A DNA stretch of 64,000 nucleotides, from positions 7,088,001 through 7,152,000 of the forward strand of contig AP031357.1 in NCBI GenBank assembly GCA_037833965.1. The letters run 5' to 3'. Position numbers and translations under genes: made by a program. The notes under the pieces were generated by a model, which had not been told where the DNA came from, made no database searches, and worked only from the letters and a program-made list of their open reading frames with translations. The stretch comes from Marchantia polymorpha subsp. ruderalis. Its lineage: Eukaryota > Streptophyta > Marchantiopsida > Marchantiales > Marchantiaceae. This document shows, one piece after another, positions 1 to 64,000 of the stretch (position 1 is the first letter of the stretch; each line of letters opens with the position of its first letter).

Positions 1-1004
1 TTGCCTTGGCTTCCTACTCAAAGTTTGGTCTTGTGGAAACTCTATGCACACACTCCACATGTTGGCGGTGTGCGAAGCGGGCATCAAGTTGAATGATCGA
101 ATTTATTAAAATCCCAGAGGACTTCAGTAATGTAGTCAAGATTCATCTGAGTGCATAAGAATGAAGACAACACGAGTCATTTAAAAGGATCCTCGGGACA
201 GAAGTATGCACACATCTTCCGGAATGTCAGTCTCTATGTTCTGCTTGTATTAAAATATGCCTCACTAGTGAGACGCATCGATTGAAACAAAAGTGAATTG
301 TGAAATTCGTATTTGCCACCAGGATAAGAAGAGTATTACCAGTGAATATTTTCTATCAACGTCCGTACTGAACTCAGCTTCTTGTCAACGAAAGATGCAG
401 AGGGGCGGTGACAAGTTTGCCCATACATCTGGGAGACAATATATTCCCTGTACAGGTGGCAGGTAAGCTCGATAGACCAACAAACATATCGTACAACTCA
501 GAGAGACATTCTCAGTGACATGTATATTACCCCTTGACACACAGTATGAATATGAGGAACATCTTTTAAGTTTCTGGTGGTATTTGTGGACACAAAAGAT
601 TCCTTCCGTCTCAATTTGAAAACAGTTCTCACCCACACAAATTTAATCTTGCATGCGGTTCTACCTGCAAATCATGAAAAACCAAGGATACTATTCCCCA
701 CTCATGATCCATAGCACAACCGGTAACTCCAATGCACACTAGTCATACGGAGTGTACGCACATTGGTACCGAAGACCAGTTTGCTAAAGTCCTCATCTAT
801 ATATTATGTTTCGAAACTAACATTTGTTGGCTTTTAATGCACGCAGGCGCCCATTCTCCTAAGGGATGAGTCCAGCACTTACTCGCCTACATGGACTGAC
901 TGTCTCACTTTGCATCAGAAGTCGTTGTCTCGTATCGTATTGACAAAAGTTATAGTACACGGCATGTTCCACCTTCGCGAAGACCGCTCTACGAGTGGCT
1001 TTAT
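1..1004. other. Intergenic, nothing recognised
   Basis: About 1 kb of mixed-composition DNA downstream of the SOUL gene, which is on the minus strand. Short open frames occur on the minus strand (for example 385-636) but none resembles a known family or shows splice-site support. The part next to 1005 should contain the 3' UTR of the SOUL gene. Confidence 0.5.
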
Positions 1005-2218
1005 CTACTTTGCACTCAGACTCTCAGCCGACTTATCCAACTTGATGTTGACCCACACTTCGTTCTTGCGATTGAAAATCTGAAATGGACTGCTGTACTG
1101 AGCAATGGCGTAAGAATCCAGCCCCTCGATAGGATAAGTAGCATCCTTGGCAAAATCTGAGCTTCCCAAGCTGATAGAGAGCTTCTCAGCCTCTTGAGCC
1201 ACGTTGAAGTCCATTGCATATCCGGAGAATGTCCTCACTGCAACGGTTCGCTTGCCCCAGCGCTCGAAAGTGAGGTCAAGTTCCTCGAGAGGAGTTGGCG
1301 GCGCCTTGTGAAACTTCGGAGGAACGTAAAACCGCACGGCAAAGGCAGACGAACAGAACGGCCCAGCGGAGGGAACAATCCCTGTCACCACGGGGGATGT
1401 CATCGGCACTCTTGTCCAGTTGTGATTGCCACCTTCGATATACTCAAAGAGCCTGCATAAGGCATTGACAAGAACAAAGACTAAGTCAGAAATTCTACTC
1501 TCCTGATATACATCGACCACGCATTCCACAGTTGGGTGTCAAAGTCATGCAAAATGAGACTGTATGAGAAAAGAGCTTTGAATTAAACTGTACATCGAAT
1601 GATGTAAACCCACATTCATGGTTTCATTCGCGAGGAGATCAGGCGTTTGGTTTCATGTATACTTGTAGGGCACTGCACGTGGAGCGCTTGGCTCGCTCGT
1701 GGGAAGCAGTCCTTCGTGATGTTCATTAGACGAGATGTTCATTTCCATCGTTCAAGTTTTCAAATGGAATTGAACTACGAAATATCGAACTCCACACGAA
1801 ATAAAGAAAGATATCACTAGGATTTACGCTAGTTTCAGAGAATGAGAGACGAACAAAAACGGCGACTTCCTGTGTGCATATTCCTAAACTCCTTGACCTC
1901 ACTTAAAATCAGACGTCATTGATAAAGCAAAACGATTCAAGCACTTAATTCGAATTACGAGATTTGCTTCCCGACATAATCAAACCGTCGACTTGGAGGG
2001 GAGAATTACCTGTGGAATCCAGCCTGTGTTGCATGCACAAATGAAAAATCGTCTACCATGGCAACAGCCCACACACTCTCATTGTACAAACGGACTTCAA
2101 AATCACCTTCTTCCTTCAACACAGTATACTCCGGAGTATCTAGCGCAGGAAAAGCCGCTGCATGGATGGTGCAGATGGCGAGCAGCAAACACAAAGGCAG
2201 TACGACCTTCTGATCCAT
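1005..2218 (-). CDS. SOUL/HBP-family heme-binding protein, secreted or vacuolar type, two exons
   Basis: Two exons join in frame. Exon 1 (2218-2010) ends CACAG before GTAATT. Exon 2 (1452-1005) follows an ATGCAG acceptor, and codon 70 (Arg) is split across the junction, giving 218 residues. The start at 2218 (MDQKVVLPLCLLLAIC) is preferred over an in-frame ATG at 2239 because it places a hydrophobic signal peptide at the N terminus. Family features are EYTVLKEEGDFEVRLY near residue 30, RLFEYIEGGN after the junction, VPMTSPVV (the MTxPV motif of SOUL proteins), a FYVPPKF strand and the PPTPLEELDL segment before a TVAVRTFSGY strand. SOUL proteins bind heme or tetrapyrroles; plant members are cytosolic, plastidial or secreted, and the signal peptide here suggests the secretory route. 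Length is normal for the family. Family assignment is firm; ligand and location are inferred. Confidence 0.9.
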
Positions 2219-3060
2219 CTTTCGCGTACCGCACATCAAAATTTAAGTCAGAATCTGCAAGAAACCCAACCAGCAGCCCAAAAACATTAGCAATCAAAAA
2301 ACTCCAAAGACATTCCGATCCTCTAAGTGAAACCAGATGAACGAAGCAGATTGCATCTTCCACCCGAGGATCTCCTCGGGTGAACTGGGTTGACTGTCAA
2401 ATGATACAACTCCCGGATAATCTCCACTTATAGGACCCGTGGAGTTGACATCGATAGATGAGGCATCGATATCAAGCACATGCCTCAGCTCGCTGCTCAA
2501 CATGAAAGCACATCACTTCCCACCGAATTTACGGAATTCACTGAAAATGCATTCGAAGAGCTTCATATAAAACTAAAGCATATTCCTCTACACGAAATCC
2601 ATAGCTAAATTGGGACATCAATCTCACCCCTCCCTCTCAGGTTAGCCAAGATTCCTCCCCGATATGAGTTCCACTAGGCAAAACCTAACCATAAAATCTA
2701 AAGCTACTCTCTCTCTCTCCAACAATTGACAGAAGATCTGTCCAGAAAAGAACCGACCTTTCTCTTCGGAGCAACGACAGCTTCAAGGAAACCGGATGAA
2801 GTGGAAACCCAAACAGCAGAGTGTCCGCCTTGAATGTAGCAGAAGGAAGGGGATTTATTGCCGAGACGGGAGCCCTACGTACAATGTTCGACCTGACAAG
2901 TGGTGTCCTGGCTGCCACACAAGACCAAATCTGTGCCTAGCTCTGAGTCAGACGATCCTGTGCGACCTCGTCGATCGCCATAACATAGCGGGCAATGCAA
3001 GTTTTCTTATCCAGCTCGTTATTCTATTAATACAACGCTCTTGCTGAAGATTCACGAAGG
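2219..3060 (-). promoter_or_regulatory. Probable 5' UTR and promoter side of the SOUL gene
   Basis: Region upstream of the SOUL start on the minus strand. A short CT run at about 2706-2720 on the plus strand reads as GA on the gene's strand, the pattern seen in front of the other genes here (10.4 and 34.5 kb). No TATA element could be placed with confidence. Short open frames (such as 2685-2918, minus) have no recognised family. Confidence 0.35.
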
Positions 3061-5182
3061 AAGCCAAGTGTCTTCGTTGAGTCTCCTTGTTCTCGGGCCT
3101 TGGGGCCGTATCCTCTCGTCATGTCCAATGCCTTCTGTGCTTCCCCGTCATCTGCCGTTTTTTACAAGTCTCCTTCTTGACGTAAACCTCGTATTTATTT
3201 TTCCTGTTTGAGATTCGGTGCGATTTGAAGTGCGTTGCTTGAGGCCAAAAATCATTTAATACATTGAAAAAATATTCACGCGTTACATTTTCTTACCGCG
3301 TTTATAATGCGGCGAGGGAGATTATGCAATTTTCCTCTAACCAGATTCTTGATTCTTGTTAACATCAAGCGATAACGAGTGTAAGTATTTGTTGTTAATC
3401 AAATAAAGGAGAGTTGTCTAGTAGAGTTTGATATAACAATTTTAACATACACTCCTACGTCTCGTTCGAGATGTTGTTCTAGCAAAGTTGTATGTTCATG
3501 GAAGTTTACATTATTACTCCAACTCTTACTTATCACACCATGGCTTAAACTATCCATTCGCACATTGATTGTTTTGCTTTAGAAGTAGTAGTTTATAACC
3601 ATCTGTTTGCACATCGATTGACTTAATTCAGATGTAGTAAATATTCATATGACATTTCTCTTGGAATGAGAAATATAACTACGCAAGATGTCATCAGATA
3701 TTTCGTATTAAGTATTATGGGAGAGGTTGCCTAACAGACACAGATTATTCTTGACATGTCTTCCAGTGGACTCTATATAGGTCAATTTTATATTTGGTTA
3801 TAAAAGATCAAATTATACTTGAAAATATGGAGATTGTAAATACTGCACATGACACGATTTACATTGCATGAGGGTATGATTACTTATATTTTTTAATATG
3901 TATAAACTCAGGATTCCAAAATTCGTGGGCATGTAGATCTTTCATTTATTATGCTTAGATTAATATGGAACTAACTATGCTTGTGTCCACATGTTTGTGA
4001 AAAGAATATCATACTAGGAAGCATGAATTTGACTTTTTTAGCATGTTAGCTGATATTTATCAAATCAAATGTTTTCATTAGGAAAAAGAGCAATAGCTGA
4101 TATTGTAGTACCTAGAAGATTCATCATATTTATTGATGAAAATATATTAAGTGATCTTAACCTTGTTGTTTGTATTCAGTTATTTGTAATTATCTTACAT
4201 GTTGTAAAACAAGATCTTAAATTTTCTTCAGTCATAGCATTTGATTCGCTATTTGAAACTTTACAAGATTGAATTTATTCAGACATTTTTAACTCCTTGT
4301 GTATAGTTGTTAGTATTATATTCACAATATTTTTCACGGGCAAGTAATAAGTTTTTTACTACAAAATTTTAAACATTTAGATATGCATCAATGAATCAAT
4401 CTGCATCTATCACATGCAATCTAATTACACGTATCGAAATGTAGAATCAATTTTTGTGAACTATATTATTATATGGTTTGTAGTTGTTATTAGACATCTT
4501 CATTGTCTCATATTATTTTGTCATAATAAAAAAGGATGATTGTTGATAGAAAATTTGGATGAGCTTGTAATCTGCACAAATTATAAAAAGTCATAATACA
4601 ATTTGAAAATCATTTTTTAGCTTAAAAAGTATTTTGTGAAAATTGAGAATGTATTTATCAGCTAATTTTGACTTGGTTGTATTATTTTAGTGAATTCTGA
4701 TCTTCATCTATCTCACAATCACTTCAATTTCTACTTACATTTTATGGAATATATTAATATAACAAAAAGTTGCAATCTGAATGCTAAAATTATTGACAAC
4801 AAATATTGGATGCATCGTTGTACCTAACAATATGTTATTATGCAGTTAATTATTAATAAATCAAAAAATGTACAGACATAGTTCTGAAACATATGCTAGA
4901 GTGTTATTTCATATTTTTTTTTAAATCGAAATCATCATAGTGAAACAATATAATTTGAACTATGATATAAATTATAAACTGAAATGAATTAACTGTGACT
5001 TATTTTTAGAATGTTTAAAACTTTAAAAAAATATAACATAAAGTGAACTGTTTGAAAATATAATTTTTTTAACAAGAACAAAATTCAATTATTTCAAAAT
5101 GGATGAGTTATGAAAATGATACTCTTTGAAGTTATTCTAGGAAGTAAGTACTACTTTTGTGCTGTTCAATGTTCAACAACAT
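3061..5182. other. AT-rich intergenic DNA
   Basis: Strongly AT-rich with no coding signal on either strand; the only open frame above 60 codons (4069-4272) has no recognisable family and biased composition. No transposon domain could be identified. Confidence 0.6.
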
Positions 5183-25342: not shown

Positions 25343-28300
25343 TGTAATGACAGACAAAAACCAAAATGGAGCATAATGGTTTAGATGTGATCCCACGAGG
25401 ACAAAAACAACCACAAAAGTCACGATTTGTCACGTATTAGCATTCTATTAAGGAGTTTTACTTCTTAGGCCAATGCCATTCCCAGAAGACACTACTCAGC
25501 TACGGCCAAAGACATGCAGAGTAGCACATAATCACATTCACAACCTGAAACTTGTTCAATCAACGCCTGTGGAAATCGCCTGCGATCCCACACTTAGATT
25601 TCAGGGGGAAAACTTCCTAGCATTGCATACACCCCGACTCACTGACCCGAATACCCAGATCCGAGTTTGCTTAAATCTTGAAGAGCCCCGGCTAAACAGA
25701 ACATTCAGGCTGTACATCCACAACTACTGATGCGGTAACTTCGACAAACAGGAGCGCACTATGGTCGATGTCTGGATCACACACCAGCACACAGACACAC
25801 CGTAAATACAGTTTTATAGTCAAGACAAGCCAATTTACAGAAAAGACTCCCAAGGAAAGAGCCTTGGGTTTCTTTATTCACAATGGCAACTCTGGAATCT
25901 CCACCGCCTGAGGCGAATCACTCTCAGGTGTTGTGCCGTCTGATGTAGCGGTTACGATGTTGTTTAAACTTATATTTGCTCCTAGTCTACGCAAAACGTT
26001 TACAATCTCTAACTCTACATTCTATCGCGTCTCATCTAATTCCTTAGAAAATGTCTTAACTATCTCTACAATCTGCTTCTGTCCTGCAGATCCACTGGCT
26101 TTAGTGCTCATCAATCGTCGTTCGAGTGAATCTAACTTTAGCCACTTCACCGTTTGCAATCTCCACATTGCGAATCCGCGCAGGCACTTCTCTACACGCA
26201 ATCTCAATTCATCGGTTGTCTCATCCCGCAGATGACAGTAGGCATGCTCTGACTTTTCCATTCTCCTCCGCGACTCTTCCGATCTCATGTGCGCCTTACC
26301 TAACTGCTCTCGCAACCGTTGACATTCCGATTCAACCTTTAATTTACATTTGACCTCCGAAGACTTGGCCGATTCGCAATCTGCCAATTTCTTGGCCCAA
26401 TTCGTCAACTCCTCTTCATGCTTGTGAATTCCCTCCGACAGACTCGCCGATAGCTCCTCCGCGCGTCGGAATTCCATGTCACACTTACCCGCAATCTCCG
26501 CAACCTTACTACAAAGTTCCTCTTCCGCCGTCTTCGCCTCTGCAATCTTCCCCGAAAGTTCTTCGGCGATACGAGCTTCTTCGGCTATTCGGGCTTCGGC
26601 TATAGCGAATGTCTTAGCGTGCATCTTCTCCCGCCTCTCGGTAGTCGTGATCAGTCTCTCTGATCGTTGGACTGCCACTTCGTACGCCTCCTTAGATTTC
26701 TCCAATCTTTCGAGCAGGTCCACTGTCACCTTCTGCGCGTTCTCGTTAGAGACACGAAGTCCGCCACATGTCTCCTCCAAGTTCGCACATTGTCCGGATT
26801 CCTTCGCCAAATTCAACAGCAGCACTTCGCACTCAATGTCCTTCTCCGGGAGTTGATATTCTCGCTCCTTCAATGCCGCCTTCGCTGCTACGCACTCAGC
26901 TAACAAGATTGCTGCTCGCTCTTTCGCCAACTCAGTCGCGGAATCCCACTCCCTCTTCACTGCATCTGCTCTCTTGAGCTTTGTCATCTTCCTAATCAGC
27001 TCAACATAGGATTCAGACTCCTTCCTCACAGTATACTTTTCCCTCTTCGTGTCTAGGTACCTCAGTAAAGGTACTAAGCTATCATGCAAGAAGTCGGGGA
27101 AGGTAATTTCCAATGGCTTCATCTCTTCGCCTGAAGTCTTCGTCATGACTTCAGATTTTACTTCCTACTCTGGTGGTGGCGGCCCTTGTTCTTCTACCAG
27201 ATTCCTCAGAGTTCCACCAACCTCTGCCACAATCTGTTCCAAGATTGCTTCGCTCAACGTAACCTCCGTTGCTACTTCTCCTCCGATCTTCGGCTGAGGT
27301 ACGTCCTCACTCCCCACAGACCGCGTCCACTCCGAAGAAAGAAAATTTGGACTTACTATCTATGTTCCCTCCTTCGAAGGTTCCACTGTCACGTCCGTTG
27401 GAACTTCGACTGGTACCGCAAAAGGTACTCCTGTCACCACAAGCTGTGTCGCTCGCCAGCTGCTACTTCAGGTGGGGCGTTGGTTGGAGCAATTGTCTTC
27501 TCCACACTGCTGTCCGAAGCTTCGGTTACTACCAACCCTCGACTTGCTTTTCTCTTCGGTCTAGCGCGAGTTTTCAACTGTCTAACTCCCTCTATCTCCG
27601 TTTACGCTCTTCTTACCTCTAGCATCAAGTACTCCTCGTCATCAGTCACCACCTTTTGCCTCTTTGCCAATCGCCGTTCTGGCTTCTCTCAATTTGGCAG
27701 AACTTCTACCTGAACAAGTCCGCGTGCTGTTGTGTGAGGTGGAATTTGAGGTCGATTTCTATCCTCTTCTTCGGTCCCTTCACTGAATTCAACTGCTAAG
27801 ATTTCCAGCTCCCTCGTAAATTGCTTCTCCTCCTTCCTTGTAAGCAATACCATGCCTCGATAGAAATTCACTAGCAAGGAAGTCAAGTGATTCGCCAATG
27901 GTCCTGCCCACCAGAGCTCGCATTCATCCAGACAAGATCGTAAAAGATTCTTGCCCAGTACACCCGCTGTCCCTTAATGACTTGTTCGAAAAATCCTACT
28001 TGCCAGGCCGTGATATAAATCGTTCGCGCCGGTCGCTGGATGTGCATAATGCCCAGCGCTATTGCCCGTCTCTTCGGATCCTTGTAGTCGGCGGTCTTCC
28101 ATCCATTTGTCCCAGACCTTCCATTAGTGAAGAGTGGCCCGAAGGAGAATTCTTCCATGCGAGTAAGGTTCCCGCTACTCTTCTCGAACAGGATATCCCC
28201 GTCGCTACTTGCACACGGCCCCATCACTCTCGCCCAATGCTCTATCGTCCACAACATTGGATTGCCTCGGAGATCCTCGCCCCCAGTCCGGTTCTTGTCC

Positions 28301-28881
28301 ATAATCTCCTTGCAAATGCTCGCCGAGATGCAATTCCAATTCCATAGGAGAAAATCAAGATATAATTCATTGAGCTCGCGCCTGAAGGATCGCAATTCCT
28401 CGTAGGGTACCTTCAATAGAACCAATTTCCGCACTTTGTCGCTCTTCTTGGACGGCGTCATGTCTTCACTTCGTGTCGTCGTGGAATCGATGTCGATCAA
28501 TCTCTCTCTCTGCGCTCGCTCTCGCTCAGTATCGCAATGTCGGCGCCCTTGCTTCTACCTTTGCCTTTCCCTCAATGCTCTAACATTGACTACTTCCACG
28601 CCCAGTAGGATTCTCGACGCGTGAGAACGTTGTCCGGCCCGTTGCGCATTTTGAATTGATTTTGATGTCTTCGCCGAAGACTCAGATCTTGCACTGTCCA
28701 GAAAGGCTACGCCGAAGATCTTTGAATCTTTGGATCTTCGGCCGAAGGCAAAGTCTAACTAATAATAATTCTATCATAATGTCTCTAATTCTACTCCTTC
28801 TAACTCATATGTCTACCTTCTACACAAATATGTTTAAGTTTTGTTAATTTTTGAAGAAAAACAAAAAAACTAGGCACCACA
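25343..28881 (-). mobile_element. Full-length solo LTR-like unit with internal ORF (3.54 kb)
   Basis: On the minus strand the unit starts TGTGGTGCCTAG at 28,881 and ends TCATTACA at 25,343. Both ends match the termini of the LTR at 59,894-61,799: TGTGGTAACCCAC followed by TTTTTGTTTTTC at the 5' side, and a 3' side containing blocks equivalent to the bases around 58,360-59,330. Flanking pentamers on the plus strand are ACATC (25,338-25,342) and AAATC (28,882-28,886), four of five identical, as expected of an aged 5-bp target duplication. Between the ends lies a long broken ORF (28,461-26,022). No PBS or polypurine tract is inside. The simplest reading is a solo LTR left by recombination, from a family whose LTR encodes a protein. 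Confidence 0.7.
26022..28461 (-). pseudogene. LTR-encoded protein: conserved N-domain, linker, coiled coil (broken)
   Basis: Three blocks are in order on the minus strand. Block 1 (28,461-27,883; ATG choice follows homology with the 42-kb copy) has LYLDFLLWNWNCISASICKEI, LWTIEHWARVMGPCA, DYKDPKRRAIALGIM and TIYITAWQVGFFEQVIKG. Block 2 (27,898-27,689, another frame) continues with HLTSLLVNFYRGMVLLTRKEE. A P/T/S/E-rich linker with one in-frame TAG just upstream of 27,146 leads to block 3 (27,146-26,022, 374 codons), an Ala/Glu/Lys/Arg-rich heptad-like coiled coil ending CLRGFAMWRLQTVKW...SKELDETR. Two frameshifts and at least one stop inactivate it. The function is unknown to me. Layout and the W-rich N-domain recall the extra ORF proteins of Athila-type elements; this is inference. 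Confidence 0.7.
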
Positions 28882-40100: not shown

Positions 40101-40764
40101 CTCCCCACCCTTCAGCGTTTGTAATCCAGGTGGGGGTTTAAGCTCCCATAATCCAACTTCTCTGATCTCAAGCCATGTGCTCAAAGTGTATTCAAGACAA
40201 TGAAATTATAAATACTCGCTTTTCCACAAACAAATTGTCCAGAACTGACACTAACAACTTGCTGTCTGCTATTTTCACAAGAGTAGCAGACAAGCTCCTC
40301 GTAACATAAAGATCTATCCCAACTCTGGGTGACTTTCTCAATACTACGGCCGCTGCGGGCCTATCCTAGAATGAGTGCCACATCTCGGACACATTGCCTC
40401 GGACTAAGTTAGGTAACACACCGGCAGCACGAGGTGACACCCTTCTTAACAGCAATCTTCACACCCAGGGAACACGATTCTACTCTCAACACTTTGCTTG
40501 ATTCTTCCTCTTAGTGATCAACTCACTCTCAGCCCAGCGACCCTCTTGGCCTTCACACACACTCTCCACTCAGCCCTCCGGCGACATTATCAGCGGCCCC
40601 ACGCACTCAACGCCCTTGCACTCAGGGATTTCTCCCTCCTATCATATTCCACCCACAATGTCGAGTATCAGATTTCAGTCTCAAATCCTCAGTTCCCACC
40701 TTCGATTTCAGTTCCACTCCCAATACCTACTTAGAGAATTCAAACTCTTCAATAGACTGTTATG
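40101..40764. other. Intergenic
   Basis: No gene recognised. The region ends with a short copy (40,733-40,763) of an LTR segment that recurs at 41,152-41,183 (GAATTCAAACT-TCAATAG-CTGTTA), so the left side of the following LTR fragment is rearranged. Confidence 0.45.
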
Positions 40765-41274
40765 GTGTGCTGCTGGATCGTTTCTCAGTTGAGTCCCTCC
40801 GTGCGGACCTGTGTTCTTTGCGCGTTTTATGAGTTGAGAGTGTTGTTCACCGCGTGTGAGTGACTTCGATCCGAAGTAGGAAGTCCAACCCGGGTTTCCC
40901 ACGCTAGCAGAAGGCTAGTGGAAGGGTTGTAAAAGCCGGAGTTGGGAGTCACTACCCGCAGATTCGCTGAGTGTACTCGCGAGAGACTTTCCCCCCTGAA
41001 ATCTTAAGTAGAGGTTCTAACCGATCTCTGGGTTGTGTTTCTGTAGTTTCAGGTGTGTGTGTGTGTGTTGAGTGAACTACGCTGCACTGTGCGACCTCCG
41101 AGTGAGCTCCGAGTGAACACTTGCAGTATTTCTGGGAGTGACAGTCGCCTGAGAATTCAAACTCCTCAATAGTCTGTTAAATGTGACACTTTGTACCCTG
41201 TGTGTTCCTCTGTCCCTGTGGGTTCGACCTTTCTACCACTATATTGCAGTTTTAGCCTTTAGTGGGTTATTACA
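40765..41274 (+). mobile_element. 3' fragment of an LTR of the 59-64 kb family, plus orientation
   Basis: From about 40,765 (CTGCTGGATCG) the sequence follows the LTR segment 61,275-61,799, with diverged blocks, then GTGACAGTCGCCTGAGAATTC and TTTTAGCCTTTAGTGGGTTATTACA, split here only by substitutions. It ends exactly at the LTR terminus at 41,274. No PBS follows; the next base enters the minus-strand ORF of another copy, so the end marks an insertion or rearrangement point. Confidence 0.75.
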
Positions 41275-42233
41275 GTCCTCCTCCGAGGATGGGATCTCCT
41301 TCTCTCTCCGGCGGCCCGCGCCGTTTCCGCGCTACTTGCAGGTAGTACAAGCCGGCGCGCTTTCTGCTTCGGCCGACTGTAGAGCTCGTGGAGTGGCCGC
41401 TTCCGTGTGAGAGCAGCCGAATCTTGATGTTGCTCTTTCTCCGGTTCCTCTCTCCATCTCCGTTTCCGCGGCACTCGCGCTGCGGATGTATCTCTCCCCG
41501 TATCCTGTTGAGCCGGTGGAGTGGAAGTCGGAGTGGACTCCGCGTCGGAGTCGACCTCGTTATCCCGCACATACCTCCCGAGATTGCCGAGTGACAACAG
41601 CGGAAACTGAATACGCTCGGTCGCGGTTAAGCAACCCATCGACCGATAAAAGTTTATCAAGAAGGGAGAGAGATGATTGATCGTTCCTCCCTTCTCCTCA
41701 AACGCATGCTGCCGCGTTACTCTATGCAAGATACACGACCAGTGAACTGGAGCTCCGGCCAATGTGAGCTCCACGAAAGACACTTGCCAAGAAGTGATGT
41801 ACGTTGTGCGGTGCGGCTGCAAGGGTTGCAGAAGTGCTATCGCTACGTTTCTGCGGAAGCGATCTTTGTAGTCACGGGTCCTGTACCCGTTCTTGGTGGA
41901 CTTCTCTCTCTTGAACAATTCCACAAAGGAGGCCTCTTCCGCCTTCGACACCTTGACGCTCTCACTGTCAAACAGGAGTAACCCATCCTCGCCTGCACAT
42001 CTCCCTAGCACTTGTCCCCAATCGTGGACAGTCCAACGATCTACGTGCGGTCGAAATCCGCGCGTAGGCTGGTGTCTCTCCCATTGCCATTCGCGCACCA
42101 TGTTCAGGCACACGTAATTCCATCCCCACAGCATGAAATCGAGTTTCACTGCAATCAGCCGGTCCTGAAAAGCACGCAACCCAATCTGCGGAAGCTTGAG
42201 TGGAACCATCCGCAGCTGAGTGGACTTCGACAT
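41275..42233 (-). CDS. LTR-encoded protein, N-terminal domain and basic linker (3'-truncated)
   Basis: An open frame without stops runs from an upstream ATG at 42,494 through 41,275; the ATG at 42,233 (MSKSTQLRMVPLKLP) is preferred because homology with the 28.4-kb copy begins there. About 320 residues remain. The conserved domain has LDFMLWGWNYVCLNMV, RWTVHDWGQVLGRCAGEDG, DYKDRFRRNVAIALL, TTYITSWQVSFVELTLAG and TINHLSPFLINFYRSMGCLT. A low-complexity acidic then Arg/Lys-rich segment follows. The reading then runs into foreign LTR sequence and stops by chance at 41,259. Unlike the 28-kb copy, no frameshift interrupts the domain. I do not know the function; shared Trp/Tyr positions between diverged copies suggest the protein was under selection. 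Confidence 0.6.
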
Positions 42234-43164
42234 AGCGTTCTTGAAATTCGATTGCGTGAACCTTCTTCTGCTACCCTCAAGCTTCTTGCGCACTACTTCG
42301 ATTCTCCTGCAAACTCTAATCTCTCTCGATTCCGACTGTCGCGCACTCAATTCTCTCTCTGCCACCGGGTGAGTCTCTGCGTGGTGGTGTCTGGAATGTC
42401 TCTCGGCTAGAAGGTGGACGCGCGCAGCTCGCACAAGAAATTGAAATCGCAAATTCAAGAATGGGGTGTCTGCTCTTCGCTCGCAGGATGTCATAATCGG
42501 CTCTCGGTCGTGAATGTCAACTCACTTGATGGCTGCGCCGGCTCGGAGGTGTAACGGCCCTCCTCTCGCACGTGCGGCTTCACGCTCCGCCGTCGCGCGC
42601 ACTCGCACGCTCGAAATGTCAATTTGAACTCCGCCAGCGTACAACGCCGCGGCCATGGCCGCGCAGCGCCGAAGGCGTAATTCTCGCCGACGCGCTACTC
42701 GCATTCGTACTCTGACTCGCATCAATCCCGCTCCGCCGAAGGCATTCCTCCGCACGCTCCGTCGAAGCCGAACTCCCTCTACCGAAGACGGATTTCCCGG
42801 CGGACTTTCCGCCGGCGACGAACTCCATACGCCTGTGCGTAGGCGCTGACCGTCCGCACCGAAGATGTCCGTCGGCGTAGGTCCCTTACGTTGTCCGTCG
42901 GCGTAGGCGCAGTGCCGAAGGCGGCTGTGCCGAAGGTCAACAGATTCCGTCCTGTCTGTCAATCTCTCTCGCCTCTCCGCAGGCGCTCTCGCCTCCGGAG
43001 TCCTTGTCCCCTCCGAGGGCGCACCTCTGTCCGTACCGCCGTCGCGTTGAGCCGAAGGCGGACCGTACGGATTCGCTACCCCGTTGGGCCCTTACCTAAC
43101 CTTGATGCGCTGGCACTGTAGGCACCGTACGAGCTCCACCTCCGAAGGCAAACTTCAGGGCGAA

Positions 43165-43290
43165 GTGCCTACGCGTAGGTGAATTCCTTTCGCCTATGCG
43201 TAGGCAAACTTCCTTCCGCCTGTGGGTAGGCAAAATTCTCGGCGGACTTCCCGCCGACGACGAACTCCTTCCGCCTATGTGTAGGCGCCC
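43165..43290. repeat. Palindromic GCCTAYGYGTAGGC repeats
   Basis: Four near-palindromes, at about 43,167, 43,192, 43,218 and 43,273, are separated by CAAACTTCCTTCC-like spacers. The 59-64 kb LTRs have only one equivalent (CGCCTACGGATAGGCG at about 60,258), so the block expanded in this copy. Confidence 0.7.
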
Positions 43291-43683
43291 GTCTTCGCAT
43301 CTTCCGATAGTCACAACTCCCTGAGTCCTCATCCGTTCCAGGCGTTCTTGGGCTCGTTAGAACGAGCGCGTCGAGCTCTTTTCAAAAAGACCCTGAGCAA
43401 GTCAAGGCGTTTGTGAATTGCATAAATTCTGAGGTCCCTCTAGTGCCGAAGGCGGATTATGCGCCTTGCGCGAAAGGAGAACTCCTTCAGAATCGATCGT
43501 TTAGGTCGGCGCCTGTTCCGGACATTGCGCCCAACTTCTGAATTCTACAAGATCCTGCGAGATCCGCGATTATCCATTTTCATTCTATTTAAATGTACCT
43601 ATCACCATTTACACGGTTGCTGCGGTACTGTTTTCCAAAATTGTTTTAATTTCCACAAAAAAGACAAAAAGTGGATTACCACA

Positions 43684-58358: not shown

Positions 58359-59893
58359 TGTAATAACCCACCAAAGGCTAAAACTGCAGTATGGTGGTAA
58401 AAAGATCGAACCCACAGGGACAGAGGCAACACACAGAGTAAACGTGTCACATTTAACAGACTTTTGTAGAGTTTGAATTCTAGGCGACTGTCACTCCCAG
58501 AAATACTGCAGTGCTCGACTCGGAGGCTCGACTCGGAGGAGGATCTCAACTCGGAGGATGCTCGGAGGATGCACGGTACAGCGTGGTCACTCAACACACA
58601 CACACACACACACACCTGAAACTGGCAAAAAGCACAACTCGGAGGTCGGTCAGGACCTCCGCTTCGGATTTCAGGAGGAAAGTGTCTCACAAGTTCACTC
58701 AGAGGTTCTGCAGGTAGTGCCTCCCACTCCGGCTTTTACTGCCCTTCCGCCAGGAACTAGCGGGGGTACCCGGACTGGACTTCCCACTTCGGAACGAAGC
58801 CTCTACGTACGCCGTGGACGTCACCCTCGACTATCACACAAAACGCAGGGAGTGCAGACCCGACTGAGAACTTACTGAAAACACGATCCAGTAACACACA
58901 CACAACCTGAATTACAAACCAAGGTTTACACGAAGTAATGAAACTTCACATTGGCATTCAGGGGAAACTTCCCGTAGGAGTACAATCAGGATATGTCACT
59001 CGAAGGAGTAAGGGGGAACTGTTCAAGTATCTAACTCGCAGCCGGCTCTGAGCATCAGAAATCACCCGCAGGTGCAGATCCGCACTACTCAAGTCTCTAA
59101 CCGGGTACTAGCTCTGAACATTCAGCCGAAGGCCTTCAACTACAACATACGGTAACTTTGCTATGCTGCAGCTTCTCTACGTGGTGCCAGGACCAAAATG
59201 CACAAACACGCCAAGAAAGTGAGTTCCTGATCTGCACTTCCGAAACTGGAAGAGTCCCAAGGCAAAACGCCTTGATCTACTTTATACCCTCAAAAGATCC
59301 TAACTAGCACTACGCTATCCTATCTACCACTCGCAGTATCTGCGCGAAACCAAACTACTCTACTGCACTCAGCAGATCCGGTGCTGCGCCTCCTGCGCGC
59401 CGGACTGCTCCGCGTACTATCTCTACCTTGCCAGTCTTCCGACCGGCTGCGTAACCCCAGGCGTCGGAGCGCTGTGGTGACTTCCGACTGCAAGTGCGCC
59501 ATAGTGTCGCGCGCACCCGACAAGAAGGTTTCTAATTTTCTCGCCACTCGCCGCCGACTCCGACTGTCACCTTCCGTCAATGCCGCCGCCCGAAGCTCGA
59601 ACTCCCTGAGTGTGATCCTCTCTTGGGCTGCCACCTCCCAATGGGTGTATCCTTTTAGACAACGAGTCACCTGTGCCGCCAACTCTCCTCGCGCCTTGCA
59701 GCTGCTCTCCACCTCGGCCAGCTGCATTTCTAATCCCGCACGTTGTGCCCTCAAATCCGAGCACTCGGATTGCAAGTTGCACAACAACTCCTCATCCTCC
59801 TTGCGGGCTCTTTGACTTTCTTCTAAGGCGCGCGTCTGGCGCGCAAGCTCGGCTGCTAGGACTTTGTTCTGTCTCCGCTCCTCCTGCAGTTCC
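58359..59893 (-). mobile_element. LTR copy with coiled-coil ORF, interrupted by the 59,894 insertion
   Basis: On the minus strand the copy ends TTATTACA at 58,359. Its last ~960 bp (59,320-58,359) are nearly identical to 60,840-61,799 in the opposite direction. Upstream of that it holds an ORF where the 59,894-61,799 LTR has minisatellite and leader sequence. The copy stops abruptly at 59,893, where a plus-strand LTR starts, so the younger element inserted into the ORF. A (CA)n tract is at about 58,596-58,614. Confidence 0.8.
59320..59893 (-). pseudogene. LTR-encoded coiled-coil protein, C-terminal part (5'-truncated by insertion)
   Basis: The minus-strand frame is open from the insertion point at 59,893 to a stop at 59,320, about 190 codons. 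It begins ELQEERRQNKVLAAELARQ, a heptad-like coiled coil continuing through LQSECSDLRAQRAGLEMQL, then has RCLKGYTHWEVAAQERITLREFELRAA. That segment aligns with KCLRGFAMWRLQTVKWLKL and following residues in the 26-kb copy (Cys-Leu-x-Gly, aromatic, W, then an acidic/Leu helix), showing the same protein. It ends in a Ser/Arg-rich tail. No internal stop is present; only the N-terminal part has been cut off. Function unknown. Confidence 0.65.
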
Positions 59894-60177
59894 TGTGGTA
59901 ACCCACTTTTTGTTTTTCGTCGGAATTAGAACATTTTTGATTAGTAAGTACCGTGGTAGCAGCTGTAAATAGTAATCGGTACGCAAAGCCAGAGTAAAAA
60001 GAGGATCGAGGACAGTCAAGGGGTTTTGGGCTTAGGCCACAGTGGAACACTTGGAATGGAACGGGCGGTTCACGCTGCAGGACTCGCTTCGAGCACCTTC
60101 GGCGGTAGATCACTCATAACTTCCTCAATTCTTAACGCCTTGAGTTACTTAGGGTTTTGTTGGAAAGAACTCGACGC

Positions 60178-60193
60178 GCTCGTTCTAACGAGC
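60178..60193. promoter_or_regulatory. Conserved dyad GCTCGTTCTAACGAGC in the LTR
   Basis: Seven-base arms around a 2-base centre. The same 16 bases (or their reverse complement, by orientation) occur at 43,352-43,367, 55,874-55,889 and 62,716-62,731, always in the 5' part of an LTR copy. In the 55.9-kb copy nearly everything around it has diverged. A role as a protein-binding site or RNA stem is inferred only from conservation. Confidence 0.6.
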
Positions 60194-60342
60194 CCAAGAA
60201 AGCCTGGAACGGATGAGGACTCAGGGAGTTGTGACTGTCGGAAGATGCGAAGGACAACGCCTACGGATAGGCGGAAGGAGTTCGTCGTCAGCAGAATATC
60301 CACCTTCGGCCCTAGATGTTCGCCTTCGGCGACGGACGTCTT

Positions 60343-60579
60343 CGGGTCAACTTCAAGTCGGCAAACTCGAGGTCGGAGAACTCGAGGTCGGAAAACTTGA
60401 GGTCGGCGAACTCGAGGTCAAAGAACTTCAAGTCAGCAAACTCGAGGTCGGAAAACTTGAGGTCGGCGAACTCGAGGTCAAAGAACTTCAAGTCAGCAAA
60501 CTCGAGGTCGGCAAACTTGAGGTCGGCGAACTCGAGGTCGGCGAACTTCAAGTCGGCAAACTCGGAGTCGGAAAACCGG
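60343..60579. repeat. 15-bp minisatellite in the LTR, about 15 units
   Basis: The unit is close to AACTCGAGGTCGGCG with variants AACTTGAGGTCGGAA and AACTTCAAGTCAGCA; sets of four units form a 60-bp higher-order repeat. Because 15 is divisible by three and the unit lacks stop codons in several frames, the region is open in at least three phases: (VGKLE)n and (SANSR)n on the plus strand, (FADLK)n on the minus strand. An identical copy is in the 3' LTR at 62,881-63,117. Confidence 0.9.
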
Positions 60580-60734
60580 ATGCGGTTCAGAGATCTTGCG
60601 GAGTCCATATCTCTGCGATGGACGGTCGGATGGATCTGAAATTTGGTGGGGCCGTTGATCTCAGTCGGCCACGCATGCCTGCAAATATTCAGCCTCAGAT
60701 CTCGGATGTAAAGACGCTGGCGGCTCTGTACAGT

Positions 60735-60772
60735 AGGCTTAGGATTTAGATTTAGGGTTAGGGTTAGATTTA
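60735..60772. repeat. Short telomere-like patch in the LTR
   Basis: GGATTTAGATTTAGGGTTAGGG followed by TTAGATTTAGG mixes TTTAGGG (plant telomere) and TTAGGG units. It is repeated in the 3' LTR at about 63,273. Too short for telomere function. Confidence 0.75.
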
Positions 60773-61821
60773 GGTTGTAAGTTAGAGGGGAAGGTAGCCG
60801 CCGACTTCTCAGGTGTAGGATCTGTTGCGGCTCGCACCCTAGCGGGTAGTGTAGTGTTAGTTAGGACCTTAGAAGGTATAAAGTAGTTCAAGGCGTTTTG
60901 CCTTTTGACTCTTCCAGTTTCGGAAGTGCAGATCAGGAACTCACTTTCTTGGCGTGTTTGTGCGTTTTGGTCCTGGCACCACGTAGAGAAGCTGCAGCAT
61001 AGCGAAGTTACCGTATGTTGTAGTTGAAGGCCTTCGGCTGAATGTTCAGAGCTAGTACCCGGTTAGAGACTTGAGTAGTGCGGATCTGCACCTGCGGGTG
61101 ATTTCTGATACTCAGAGCCGGCTGCGAGTTAGATACTTGAACAGTTCCCCCTTACTCCTTCGAGTGACATATCCTGATTGTACTCCTACGGGAAGTTTCC
61201 CCTGAATGCCAATGTGAAGTTTCATTACTTCGTGTAAACCTTGGTTTGTAATTCAGGTTGTGTGTGTGTTACTGGATCGTGTTTTCAGTAAGTTCTCAGT
61301 CGGGTCTGCACTCCCTGCGTTTTGTGTGATAGTCGAGGGTGACGTCCACGGCGTACGTAGAGGCTTCGTTCCGAAGTGAGAAGTCCAGTCCGGGTACCCC
61401 CGCTAGTTCCTGGCGGAAGGGCAGTAAAAGCCGGAGTGGGAGGCACTTCCTGCAGAACCTCTGAGTGAACTTGCGAGACACTTTCCTCCTGAAATCCGAA
61501 GCGGAGGTCCTGACCGACCTCCGAGTTGTGCTTTTTGCCAGTTTCAGGTGTGTGTGTGTGTGTTGAGTGACCAAGCTGTACCGTGCATCCTCCGAGCATC
61601 CTCCGAGTTGAGATCCTCCTCCGAGTCGAGCCTCCGAGTCGAGCACTGCAGTATTTCTGGGAGTGACAGTCGCCTAGAATTCAAACTCTACCAAAAGTCT
61701 GTTAAATGTGACACTTTTACTCTGTGTGTTGCCTCTGTCCCTGTGGGTTCGATCTTTTTACCACCATACTGCAGTTTTAGCCTTTGGTGGGTTATTACAT
61801 AAGGAGCCGACAACTTCTTTT

Positions 61822-61839
61822 TGGCGCCGCTGCCGGGGA
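61822..61839 (+). promoter_or_regulatory. Primer binding site, tRNA-Asp type
   Basis: TGGCGCCGCTGCCGGGGA matches, with one change, the TGGCGCCGTTGCCGGGGA site of plant Athila/Tat-type Ty3/gypsy elements, which is complementary to the 3' end of tRNA-Asp. Its position 22 bp past the LTR end and the preceding run of T fit the usual arrangement. Confidence 0.9.
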
Positions 61840-62083
61840 ACAGTGCGTCAACACCAGAGTACTTGAGCAGCAATCTCAGTTAAGTCCTCAGTCGGGCCTG
61901 TACTCCCTACGTTTGGTGTGAGTCGAGGGTGACGTCCACGGCGTATGAAGAGGCTTCGTTCCGAAGTGGGAAGTCCAGTCCGGGTTCCCTACGCTAGTTC
62001 CTGGCGGAAGGGCTGTAAAAGCCGGAGTGGGAGTCACTACCTGCAGAGCCTCTGAGTGAACTTTTGAGATGAATGCTCGGTGA

Positions 62084-62431
62084 ATGTCGACGAGCGATGG
62101 TGTGGGGGACCTGAGTGCGAGAGCCACACGTAAGCTCCGTCGAGATTCGGAAAAAAAAAAAAAAAAGGAAGCCGTAGAAGAAAAACGGCGAACTACAAAG
62201 AAGACTCAAAGTGAGAACTCTGCAGAAAGATCGCCATCGCCGATTGCTGGGAGCCAAGGGTGTTCTCGTTCACCTACTGCAAGCATTGAGCTAACGGTTC
62301 TATTGGAAATCCCTCCGACAGGAACTCTTCCTGGGTCAGGCCAACCTAGGAGCAATCCGTTGACAGGATCACCAATGGCAGACCCTCAAGCCAAATGTTC
62401 GCGTGGGCGCTCACAATTGAGGAGGGGGGCA
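62084..62431 (+). CDS. Short basic ORF in the element body, possible gag remnant
   Basis: An ATG frame of about 116 codons begins MSTSDGVGDLSARATRKLRR, has a Lys run (DSEKKKKKEAVEEKRRTTKK), then a Ser/Pro-rich stretch, and reads past the polypurine tract about ten codons into the 3' LTR. A basic N terminus would fit a gag start, but no capsid or zinc-knuckle motif is present. It could also be non-coding body sequence. Confidence 0.3.
62414..62431 (+). promoter_or_regulatory. Polypurine tract
   Basis: TTGAGGAGGGGGGCA lies directly before the TG of the 3' LTR, the position of the plus-strand primer in LTR retrotransposons. Confidence 0.85.
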
Positions 62432-64000
62432 TGTGGTAACCCACTTTTTGTTTTTCGTCGGAATTAGAACATTTTTGATTAGTAAGTACCGTGGTAGCAG
62501 CTGTAAATAGTAATCGGTACGCAAAGCCAGAGTAAAAAGAGGATCGAGGACAGTCAAGGGGTTTTGGGCTTAGGCCACAGTGGAACACTTGGAATGGAAC
62601 GGGCGGTTCACGCTGCAGGACTCGCTTCGAGCACCTTCGGCGGTAGATCACTCATAACTTCCTCAATTCTTAACGCCTTGAGTTACTTAGGGTTTTGTTG
62701 GAAAGAACTCGACGCGCTCGTTCTAACGAGCCCAAGAAAGCCTGGAACGGATGAGGACTCAGGGAGTTGTGACTGTCGGAAGATGCGAAGGACAACGCCT
62801 ACGGATAGGCGGAAGGAGTTCGTCGTCAGCAGAATATCCACCTTCGGCCCTAGATGTTCGCCTTCGGCGACGGACGTCTTCGGGTCAACTTCAAGTCGGC
62901 AAACTCGAGGTCGGAGAACTCGAGGTCGGAAAACTTGAGGTCGGCGAACTCGAGGTCAAAGAACTTCAAGTCAGCAAACTCGAGGTCGGAAAACTTGAGG
63001 TCGGCGAACTCGAGGTCAAAGAACTTCAAGTCAGCAAACTCGAGGTCGGCAAACTTGAGGTCGGCGAACTCGAGGTCGGCGAACTTCAAGTCGGCAAACT
63101 CGGAGTCGGAAAACCGGATGCGGTTCAGAGATCTTGCGGAGTCCATATCTCTGCGATGGACGGTCGGATGGATCTGAAATTTGGTGGGGCCGTTGATCTC
63201 AGTCGGCCACGCATGCCTGCAAATATTCAGCCTCAGATCTCGGATGTAAAGACGCTGGCGGCTCTGTACAGTAGGCTTAGGATTTAGATTTAGGGTTAGG
63301 GTTAGATTTAGGTTGTAAGTTAGAGGGGAAGGTAGCCGCCGACTTCTCAGGTGTAGGATCTGTTGCGGCTCGCACCCTAGCGGGTAGTGTAGTGTTAGTT
63401 AGGACCTTAGAAGGTATAAAGTAGTTCAAGGCGTTTTGCCTTTTGACTCTTCCAGTTTCGGAAGTGCAGATCAGGAACTCACTTTCTTGGCGTGTTTGTG
63501 CGTTTTGGTCCTGGCACCACGTAGAGAAGCTGCAGCATAGCGAAGTTACCGTATGTTGTAGTTGAAGGCCTTCGGCTGAATGTTCAGAGCTAGTACCCGG
63601 TTAGAGACTTGAGTAGTGCGGATCTGCACCTGCGGGTGATTTCTGATACTCAGAGCCGGCTGCGAGTTAGATACTTGAACAGTTCCCCCTTACTCCTTCG
63701 AGTGACATATCCTGATTGTACTCCTACGGGAAGTTTCCCCTGAATGCCAATGTGAAGTTTCATTACTTCGTGTAAACCTTGGTTTGTAATTCAGGTTGTG
63801 TGTGTGTTACTGGATCGTGTTTTCAGTAAGTTCTCAGTCGGGTCTGCACTCCCTGCGTTTTGTGTGATAGTCGAGGGTGACGTCCACGGCGTACGTAGAG
63901 GCTTCGTTCCGAAGTGAGAAGTCCAGTCCGGGTACCCCCGCTAGTTCCTGGCGGAAGGGCAGTAAAAGCCGGAGTGGGAGGCACTTCCTGCAGAACCTCT
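62432..64000 (+). mobile_element. 3' LTR of the same element, cut by the window end
   Basis: Repeats 59,894-61,462 with a constant 2,538-bp shift and no difference seen in the stretches compared. By extrapolation it should end near 64,337. Confidence 0.88.

What the first reader, a model, noticed from the sequence alone, without database searches (positions are those of the whole stretch)
25343..28881. LTR family whose repeat itself encodes a protein
Seen: the 3.54-kb unit has both termini of the 59,894-61,799 LTR, TG...CA ends and flanks ACATC/AAATC, yet between the ends holds a ~2.4-kb ORF remnant (conserved Trp-rich domain, linker, coiled coil). The 41,275-43,683 copy has the LTR 5' end followed by the same ORF; the 58,359-59,893 copy has the ORF end followed by the LTR 3' end. 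So the ORF lies inside the repeat, not in the element body. Known: LTRs rarely carry long ORFs. Inference: full LTRs of this family are about 3.5-4 kb and would give two copies of the gene per element, with the protein surviving in solo LTRs.
Basis: partly seen in the sequence, partly recalled or inferred. Interest (0 to 1): 0.8.

Follow-up and report, generated by a model that had tools for sequence, protein, structure and literature searches.

The report
Retrotransposon carrying a gene in its LTRs
In this plant genome (very probably the liverwort Marchantia polymorpha) a large family of jumping genes keeps a long protein gene inside the repeats at both of its ends, so an insertion can bring two copies of that gene and a lone leftover repeat can still hold one.

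Summary
The window unit (25343-28881, minus strand) is an old solo LTR with a decayed ORF inside it, in sense orientation. Elsewhere in the genome the same architecture is young and intact: a Ty3/gypsy element with 5.4-kb LTRs carries an uninterrupted ~1,050-codon frame between polypurine tract and primer-binding site, i.e. within the LTR. Of 150 scored copies, 109 have frames of at least 1,000 codons; 19 same-strand pairs lie 11.15-11.25 kb apart. Four ~16.6-kb elements with an ORF in both LTRs were delimited, three with perfect 5-bp target-site duplications. At the locus read, pol stops 37 nt before the LTR, leaving no room for an internal copy; the only TATA box lies 36 nt after the ORF stop, so the ORF sits in U3, an arrangement like MMTV sag. 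The ORF shows purifying selection (median dN/dS 0.14-0.45 by divergence class), with caveats. It has no convincing Pfam or PDB relative. Its function is inferred: a trans-acting, possibly nuclear, accessory protein. Ten searches of an open-access library showed no plant retrotransposon with its gene inside the LTR. New variant of a known kind.

The parts
25343..28881 (-). Old solo LTR of subfamily B (TGTGGTGCC...GTCATTACA), 3,539 bp, with decayed ORF inside
27883..28554 (-). Open stretch with the Trp-rich N-terminal domain; conserved Met codon begins at 28461
   Evidence: alignment
26022..27164 (-). Open helix-prone C-terminal stretch of the ORF (380 aa)
25813..25818 (-). TATA box of the unit (unit position 3064), about 200 nt after the ORF frame ends
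41275..43683 (-). 5' part of a subfamily A LTR with the ORF N-terminal half (open frame 41262-42521)
40734..41274 (+). 3' end of an LTR 92% identical to the young ORF-bearing LTR
58359..59893 (-). 3' part of an ORF-bearing subfamily A LTR; ORF C-terminus at 59341-59889
59894..61799 (+). Young 1,906-bp LTR without the ORF (5' LTR of a gag-pol-less element), TATA at LTR position 984
61800..62431 (+). Internal region of 632 bp with PBS 61821-61839 and PPT 62419-62431, no gag-pol
62432..64000 (+). Next LTR copy, cut by the window end; 0 differences to 59894-61462 over 1,569 bases

Best explanation
A Ty3/gypsy LTR-retrotransposon group carries a long sense gene inside U3 of its LTRs; the window unit is a decayed solo LTR of an old subfamily. 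SHOWN: in the young family, at the locus read, the LTR is 5,394 bp, lies directly between PPT and PBS, and holds a 1,054-codon frame at LTR positions 1220-4381; gag begins 87 nt after the LTR, pol stops 37 nt before it; delimited elements have the ORF in both LTRs; the only TATA box lies just after the ORF. FOLLOWS from standard reverse transcription: the genomic RNA starts after the TATA box and so carries the gene once, between pol and its 3' end; plus-strand priming at the PPT, upstream of the gene, makes the gene part of U3, and strand transfer copies it into both LTRs; LTR-LTR recombination leaves a solo LTR that still holds one gene copy. INFERRED: the gene was once a pol-downstream accessory ORF, taken into the LTR when the effective PPT moved upstream of it. 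Its product is a trans-acting accessory protein, perhaps nuclear given its basic clusters, that helps the family; it is expressed from an upstream U3 promoter or a spliced RNA.
For: PPT-LTR(ORF)-PBS order read at C4:14592331-14598500. 109 of 150 scored copies with frames of at least 1,000 codons; 19 pairs, 11 with a listed gag between. PPT directly before the 3' ORF-LTR in 11 of 16 checkable pairs. Four elements delimited, three with perfect TSD, PBS and PPT junctions listed for all four. Old subfamily: LTR with ORF, then PBS, then gag in L070; 6 of 24 unit-type PBS junctions have a scored ORF 2.6-3.2 kb upstream. Gag PF03732 and zinc knuckles, RT PF00078 and Ty3-G match. dN/dS: medians 0.45 to 0.14 with rising dS, 0.25 and 0.31 in DNA-chosen copies, 0.20 between intact ORF and window copy; third-position excess also in transversions. 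Natural ORF-less LTRs that still multiplied fit a gene that can act in trans.
Against: Distances in noncoding LTR ends (0.18-0.22) are close to dN (0.16-0.19) and far below dS (0.64-0.92), so the strength of constraint is uncertain; in the C-terminal region outside CpG-like contexts position 1 (0.199) differs little from position 3 (0.233). One very close pair has dN/dS 1.05. Interiors of the four elements were not read; a gag is listed inside one of the four. No RNA or protein evidence; no promoter for the ORF found; ORF-less relatives multiply, so the gene may be dispensable. Function and PPT-shift origin are untested.
Confidence: 0.85

Rival explanations
1. The ORF is an ordinary internal accessory ORF between pol and the 3' LTR, and nested insertions only make it look as if it lay inside the LTR.
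For: Known plant additional ORFs are internal (PMC7264820). Nested solo LTRs are common here (L069).
Against: PPT and LTR start lie upstream of the ORF and LTR end and PBS downstream of it; paired copies with 5-bp duplications outside both ORFs in three of four elements.
Confidence: 0.02
2. The ORF is a passenger: a former gene caught in the LTR that is copied along without any role for the element.
For: ORF-less LTRs have multiplied recently (0 differences in 1,569 bases; near-identical copies); noncoding distances are as low as dN; the 150 best young copies are identical over the domain, so intactness there may only reflect youth.
Against: dN/dS medians 0.14-0.45 over most divergence classes and 0.25-0.31 in DNA-chosen copies; third-position excess in transversions; domain kept in two subfamilies about 39% identical with six of seven Trp columns shared.
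Confidence: 0.12
3. Solo LTRs with the ORF have become host genes kept for the plant's benefit, the element being secondary.
For: About two thirds of exact LTR ends lie outside PPT/PBS-marked pairs; many intact frames.
Against: 34 of 42 distinct aligned copies carry 1-5 stops in the domain alone; the intact frames belong to one young identical set.
Confidence: 0.03

Closest known systems
Mouse mammary tumour virus sag (superantigen ORF in the LTR)
   Same: An accessory ORF in the 3' LTR makes the LTR unusually long; the gene is copied into both LTRs in the DNA (PMC3026287, passages; duplication and U3 position recalled).
   Different: MMTV LTR about 1.3 kb against 5.4 kb here; a retrovirus with env; no sequence relation of the proteins was tested; splicing is documented there, unknown here.
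Plant Ty3/gypsy elements with additional ORFs (Grande, RIRE2, Retand, Athila/env-like)
   Same: gag-pol element with an extra conserved ORF of unknown function; Grande gene23 is nuclear (PMC7264820, parts 1-2 of 3).
   Different: There the ORF is internal, between pol and 3' LTR, once per element and in several families antisense; here it is sense and inside the LTR.
Non-autonomous LTR elements with short interiors (LARD/TRIM-like; class names recalled)
   Same: The 59894 element and L055/L066 have short internal regions without gag-pol but with PBS and PPT.
   Different: L055 keeps the start of the ORF in its LTR, so a gag-pol-less element can still bear the LTR gene; whether that frame is intact was not read.

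Membership tests
Ty3/gypsy LTR retrotransposon | Gag with CCHC knuckles and Ty3-type RT | tested here: met
   PF03732 E 1.9e-12, PF00098 three stretches (old copy L070); RT PF00078 E 9.1e-28 and Ty3-G match E 4.2e-35 (young copy)
Ty3/gypsy LTR retrotransposon | Direct LTRs TG...CA with PBS, PPT and 5-bp target duplication | tested here: met
   duplication perfect in 3 of 4 elements
Ty3/gypsy LTR retrotransposon | Gene order RT before integrase | not tested
   Integrase was not read; only RT and the pol C-terminus were seen
MMTV-like LTR-encoded accessory gene | ORF wholly in the LTR, upstream of the promoter for genomic RNA | tested here: inconclusive
   ORF in LTR shown; promoter position rests on a single TATA box, transcription start not measured
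MMTV-like LTR-encoded accessory gene | Expression from a spliced or separately started RNA | not testable with these tools
   No RNA data
Plant internal aORF elements | Extra ORF in the internal region between pol and 3' LTR | tested here: not met
   Pol stop 37 nt before the LTR at the locus read
Plant transposon domain families PF20167, PF04195, PF10536 (names recalled) | Profile match of the Trp domain | tested here: not met
   Not among the families listed for 29 members at E up to 10; the PF20167 genome search found nothing but its control also rang nowhere. The only repeated weak hit was PF02728, 11 of 29 members, best E 0.0077, below cut-off where shown
Solo LTR (window unit) | One LTR, flanking duplication, no PBS or PPT beside it | tested here: met
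   ACATC/AAATC, 4 of 5; no PBS motif in locus L001, no PPT upstream

The most novel reading that the evidence does not exclude
The LTR is a self-contained, heritable gene cassette: a shift of the polypurine tract pulled an accessory gene into U3, so every insertion doubles the gene and every solo LTR keeps it, giving the family a dispersed, element-independent reservoir of a trans-acting helper protein that also serves its gag-pol-less relatives.
Probability: 0.35. Interest if true: 0.9.

Novelty: new variant of a known kind. Interest (0 to 1): 0.78.

Why it matters
LTRs are usually treated as regulatory DNA and solo LTRs as non-coding scars. Here thousands of LTR ends in what is very probably a model-plant genome belong to a family whose LTRs can carry a ~1,000-codon gene under apparent selection. 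That changes how solo LTRs should be annotated, suggests that a cis element (the PPT) can move a gene between internal and terminal positions, and gives a plant retrotransposon counterpart to LTR-encoded retroviral accessory genes. If the host is Marchantia polymorpha, expression, localisation and gene-removal tests are feasible.

Tried and rejected
Internal-ORF explanation: rejected on PPT/PBS/TSD geometry. Host: first guessed a grass; replaced when contig number and sizes matched the female M. polymorpha assembly; the match is by size only (241,466,482 versus 241,484,302 bp; C1 5.59 Mb versus chrU 5.6 Mb). Structure prediction of the Trp domain, two alignments: mean pLDDT 49.5 and 44.4, too poor, so no fold search was made. 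Coiled coil: not supported by the heptad test; only 'helix-prone' is claimed. PF20167 genome search: uninformative. C5 cluster L069: nested solo LTRs, not a pair around a PBS. dN/dS uses copies chosen by protein similarity, which biases it downward; one search repeats it on DNA-chosen copies. A promoter for the ORF was sought only as TATA[AT]A; none in the LTR upstream of the ORF. An earlier count said 10 pairs with a listed gag; recounting one search gives 11 of 19. Paper searches (ten) gave no plant LTR-encoded ORF at the level of listings.

Full report
CHECK OF THE OBSERVATION. The 3,539-base unit is real and correctly delimited. On the minus strand it begins TGTGGTGCC at 28881 and ends ATTACA at 25343, with flanks ACATC and AAATC. 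The own-genome search found it plus 64 further matches, 17 of them full-length at 73-87%. Inside it, on the same minus strand, lie an open Trp-rich stretch (P0004) and an open helix-prone stretch (P0001) in different frames, so the ORF is decayed. The other two window copies are as described: 43683-41275 has the LTR 5' end and ORF residues 9-394; 59893-58359 has ORF residues 857-1043 and the LTR 3' end. That the unit has both termini of the 59894 LTR is too strong: by blastn at E 1e-8 the unit matches only itself in the window, and the two branches share about 39% protein identity. They are sister subfamilies, called B (unit) and A (the other three) here.

WHICH GENOME. The assembly has 241,466,482 bases in 9 contigs, one of them (C1) 5.59 Mb. 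The published female Marchantia polymorpha assembly has 9 sequences, 241,484,302 bp and a 5.6-Mb U chromosome (PMC13078153, passages). I infer that species and that C1 is the U chromosome; no gene was compared.

THE INTACT FAMILY. A Gag from an old copy (L070; PF03732 and three zinc-knuckle stretches) led to a young family in tandem arrays of about 11.1-11.2 kb period. Reading across one repeat (L072 and L071, C4:14592331-14598500) gives in order: the pol C-terminus and stop; 37 nt ending in the PPT gaggaggggggca; the LTR, C4:14592453-14597846, 5,394 bp, TGTGGTACC...TTATTACA; a 1,054-codon frame at LTR 1220-4381 with its stop at 4382-4384; a TATA box at 4421; the LTR end; the PBS TTGGCGCCGCTGCCGGGGA after 21 nt; and the Gag frame starting 87 nt after the LTR end. 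The PBS resembles the 3' end of plant tRNA-Asp (recalled). The RT of the same repeat is Ty3-type. At this locus the gene is within the LTR and there is no room for one between pol and the 3' LTR.

PAIRS AND COPY NUMBER. The Trp domain of that frame (P0008) gave 8,004 first-look candidates; the 150 scored are all 100% identical over 231 aa. Of these, 109 have frames of at least 1,000 codons, most often 1,059 (30), 1,054 (28) and 1,049 (11), that is, 15-base steps. Among the 150 there are 19 same-strand pairs 11,154-11,245 bp apart, using 32 ORFs; 11 of the 19 have a listed gag between them (80 of 150 gag places pasted). Of the 16 pairs in the part of the genome that the capped PPT listing covers, 11 have the exact PPT and LTR start before the 3' copy; of the 143 ORFs in that part, 35 do. 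Four elements were delimited: C3:3044618-3061195 (CTGCT/CTGCT), C3:7112564-7129140 (ATATA/ATATA), C3:6057012-6073633 (GCGCC/GCGCC) and C3:21020721-21037313 (TTTTC/ACTTT, no duplication). Each has a listed PBS junction and PPT junction; from these coordinates the LTRs are 5.37-5.41 kb and the elements 16.58-16.62 kb. Their interiors were not read; a gag is listed inside the first only (capped). Exact LTR starts number 2,928, of which 478 follow the PPT; exact LTR 3' ends number 3,430, of which 631 precede the PBS; reversed-pattern controls 0. So roughly two thirds of LTR ends lie outside PPT- or PBS-marked pairs (solo, truncated or variant). These counts do not test for the ORF.

THE OLD SUBFAMILY OF THE WINDOW UNIT. 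In L070 a 3.5-kb unit-type LTR (73% to the unit) with the ORF is followed by a PBS and gag. Of 24 unit-type PBS junctions, 6 have a scored ORF 2.6-3.2 kb upstream on the same strand, one at 4.9 kb, and 17 none among the 150 scored. None of 12 distinct unit-type LTR starts in fetched loci follows that PPT (read by eye), so these are solo or 5' LTRs. A B-type element complete on both sides was not delimited.

SELECTION. Among 35 B-type copies the median dN/dS falls from 0.45 (40 pairs, dS 0.15-0.25) to 0.14 (226 pairs, dS above 1); the single closest pair has 1.05. This is what constraint in active lineages followed by neutral decay would give, but those copies were chosen by protein similarity. 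In copies chosen by DNA similarity the median is 0.25 for the Trp domain (64 pairs) and 0.31 for the C-terminal region (104 pairs); codon-position-3 shares are 0.49 and 0.45, against phase shares of 0.30-0.39 and 0.31-0.36 in two noncoding LTR parts. The intact ORF against the window copy at 42521-41262 gives 0.20 over 410 codons. For transversions alone the position-3 shares are 0.447 and 0.413 (noncoding 0.29-0.40 and 0.32-0.35); outside CpG-like contexts the rates by position are 0.152/0.110/0.268 and 0.199/0.110/0.233. Against this: noncoding LTR distances (0.18-0.22) are close to dN (0.16-0.19) and far below dS (0.64-0.92), so the size of the constraint is uncertain, and pairs are not independent.

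MECHANISM. The LTR has one TATA[AT]A, 36 nt after the ORF stop; the ORF-less 59894 LTR has it in the same sequence context at 984, and the unit has one at 3064, about 200 nt after its ORF frame ends. So the ORF lies in U3 if that box is used, which was not measured. By the standard replication cycle the genomic RNA then carries it once, after pol, and DNA twice. The 59894 LTR does not align with LTR positions about 438-4392 and has multiplied recently (0 differences in 1,569 bases), so the gene is not needed in cis; its element also lacks gag-pol. L055 has a gag-pol-less interior and the start of the ORF in its LTR. The protein has a basic domain in which six of seven Trp columns are shared by A and B, a Pro/Ala/Ser-rich linker and a basic helix-prone tail with basic clusters. 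No PDB relative at E up to 1; Pfam gave only weak hits below cut-off, the commonest PF02728 in 11 of 29 members, best E 0.0077. A trans-acting nuclear accessory role is inferred by analogy with Grande gene23 (PMC7264820, parts 1-2 of 3). Capture by an upstream shift of the PPT is my proposal, untested.

COMPARISON. MMTV sag is nearest in arrangement (PMC3026287, passages). Plant additional ORFs are described as internal (PMC7264820, parts 1-2 of 3; PMC11963269, one passage); in PMC6317226 six terms were sought and none occurred; PMC2533021, two passages, nothing relevant. The paper searches listed nothing of the kind, judged from listings. The library holds only open-licence papers, so an earlier description cannot be excluded.

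Noticed in passing
window 59894-64000 and C8:7152338-7152969 (window 64338-64969): The young gag-pol-less element continues past the window as a tandem LTR-internal-LTR-internal array; similar arrays occur elsewhere (for example C9:4499098-4512059, C5:13296058-13302854).
   Followed up: partly
C4:14582728-14631769 and other gag places: The autonomous family also forms head-to-tail arrays with a period of about 11.1-11.2 kb, suggesting unequal recombination or tandem integration.
   Followed up: partly
contig C1 (5.59 Mb, probably the U sex chromosome): 39 of 150 scored old-type ORF hits and 13 of 24 unit-type PBS junctions lie on C1, which is 2.3% of the assembly: old copies seem to be kept there.
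   Followed up: no
L055 2100-3637; L066 3505-3636: Elements with the gag-pol-less interior whose 3' LTR nevertheless begins the ORF: the LTR gene may be their only gene.
   Followed up: partly
window 58359-59294 versus 60869-61799: Inverted arms about 98% complementary, because the young element sits in opposite orientation inside a close older relative's LTR.
   Followed up: yes
window 60289-60636; young ORF frames: 15-bp tandem repeats in the ORF-less LTR, and ORF frame lengths that differ by 5 codons, pointing to 15-bp repeat-number changes that keep the frame.
   Followed up: no
DNA-chosen copies: Synonymous distances (0.64-0.92) far exceed distances in the noncoding LTR ends (0.18-0.22) of the same copies; unexplained (conserved LTR ends, exchange between copies, or mutation bias).
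   Followed up: partly
window 41274/41275: A plus-strand LTR 3' end (40734-41274) abuts a minus-strand LTR cut inside its ORF; how the junction arose was not resolved.
   Followed up: no
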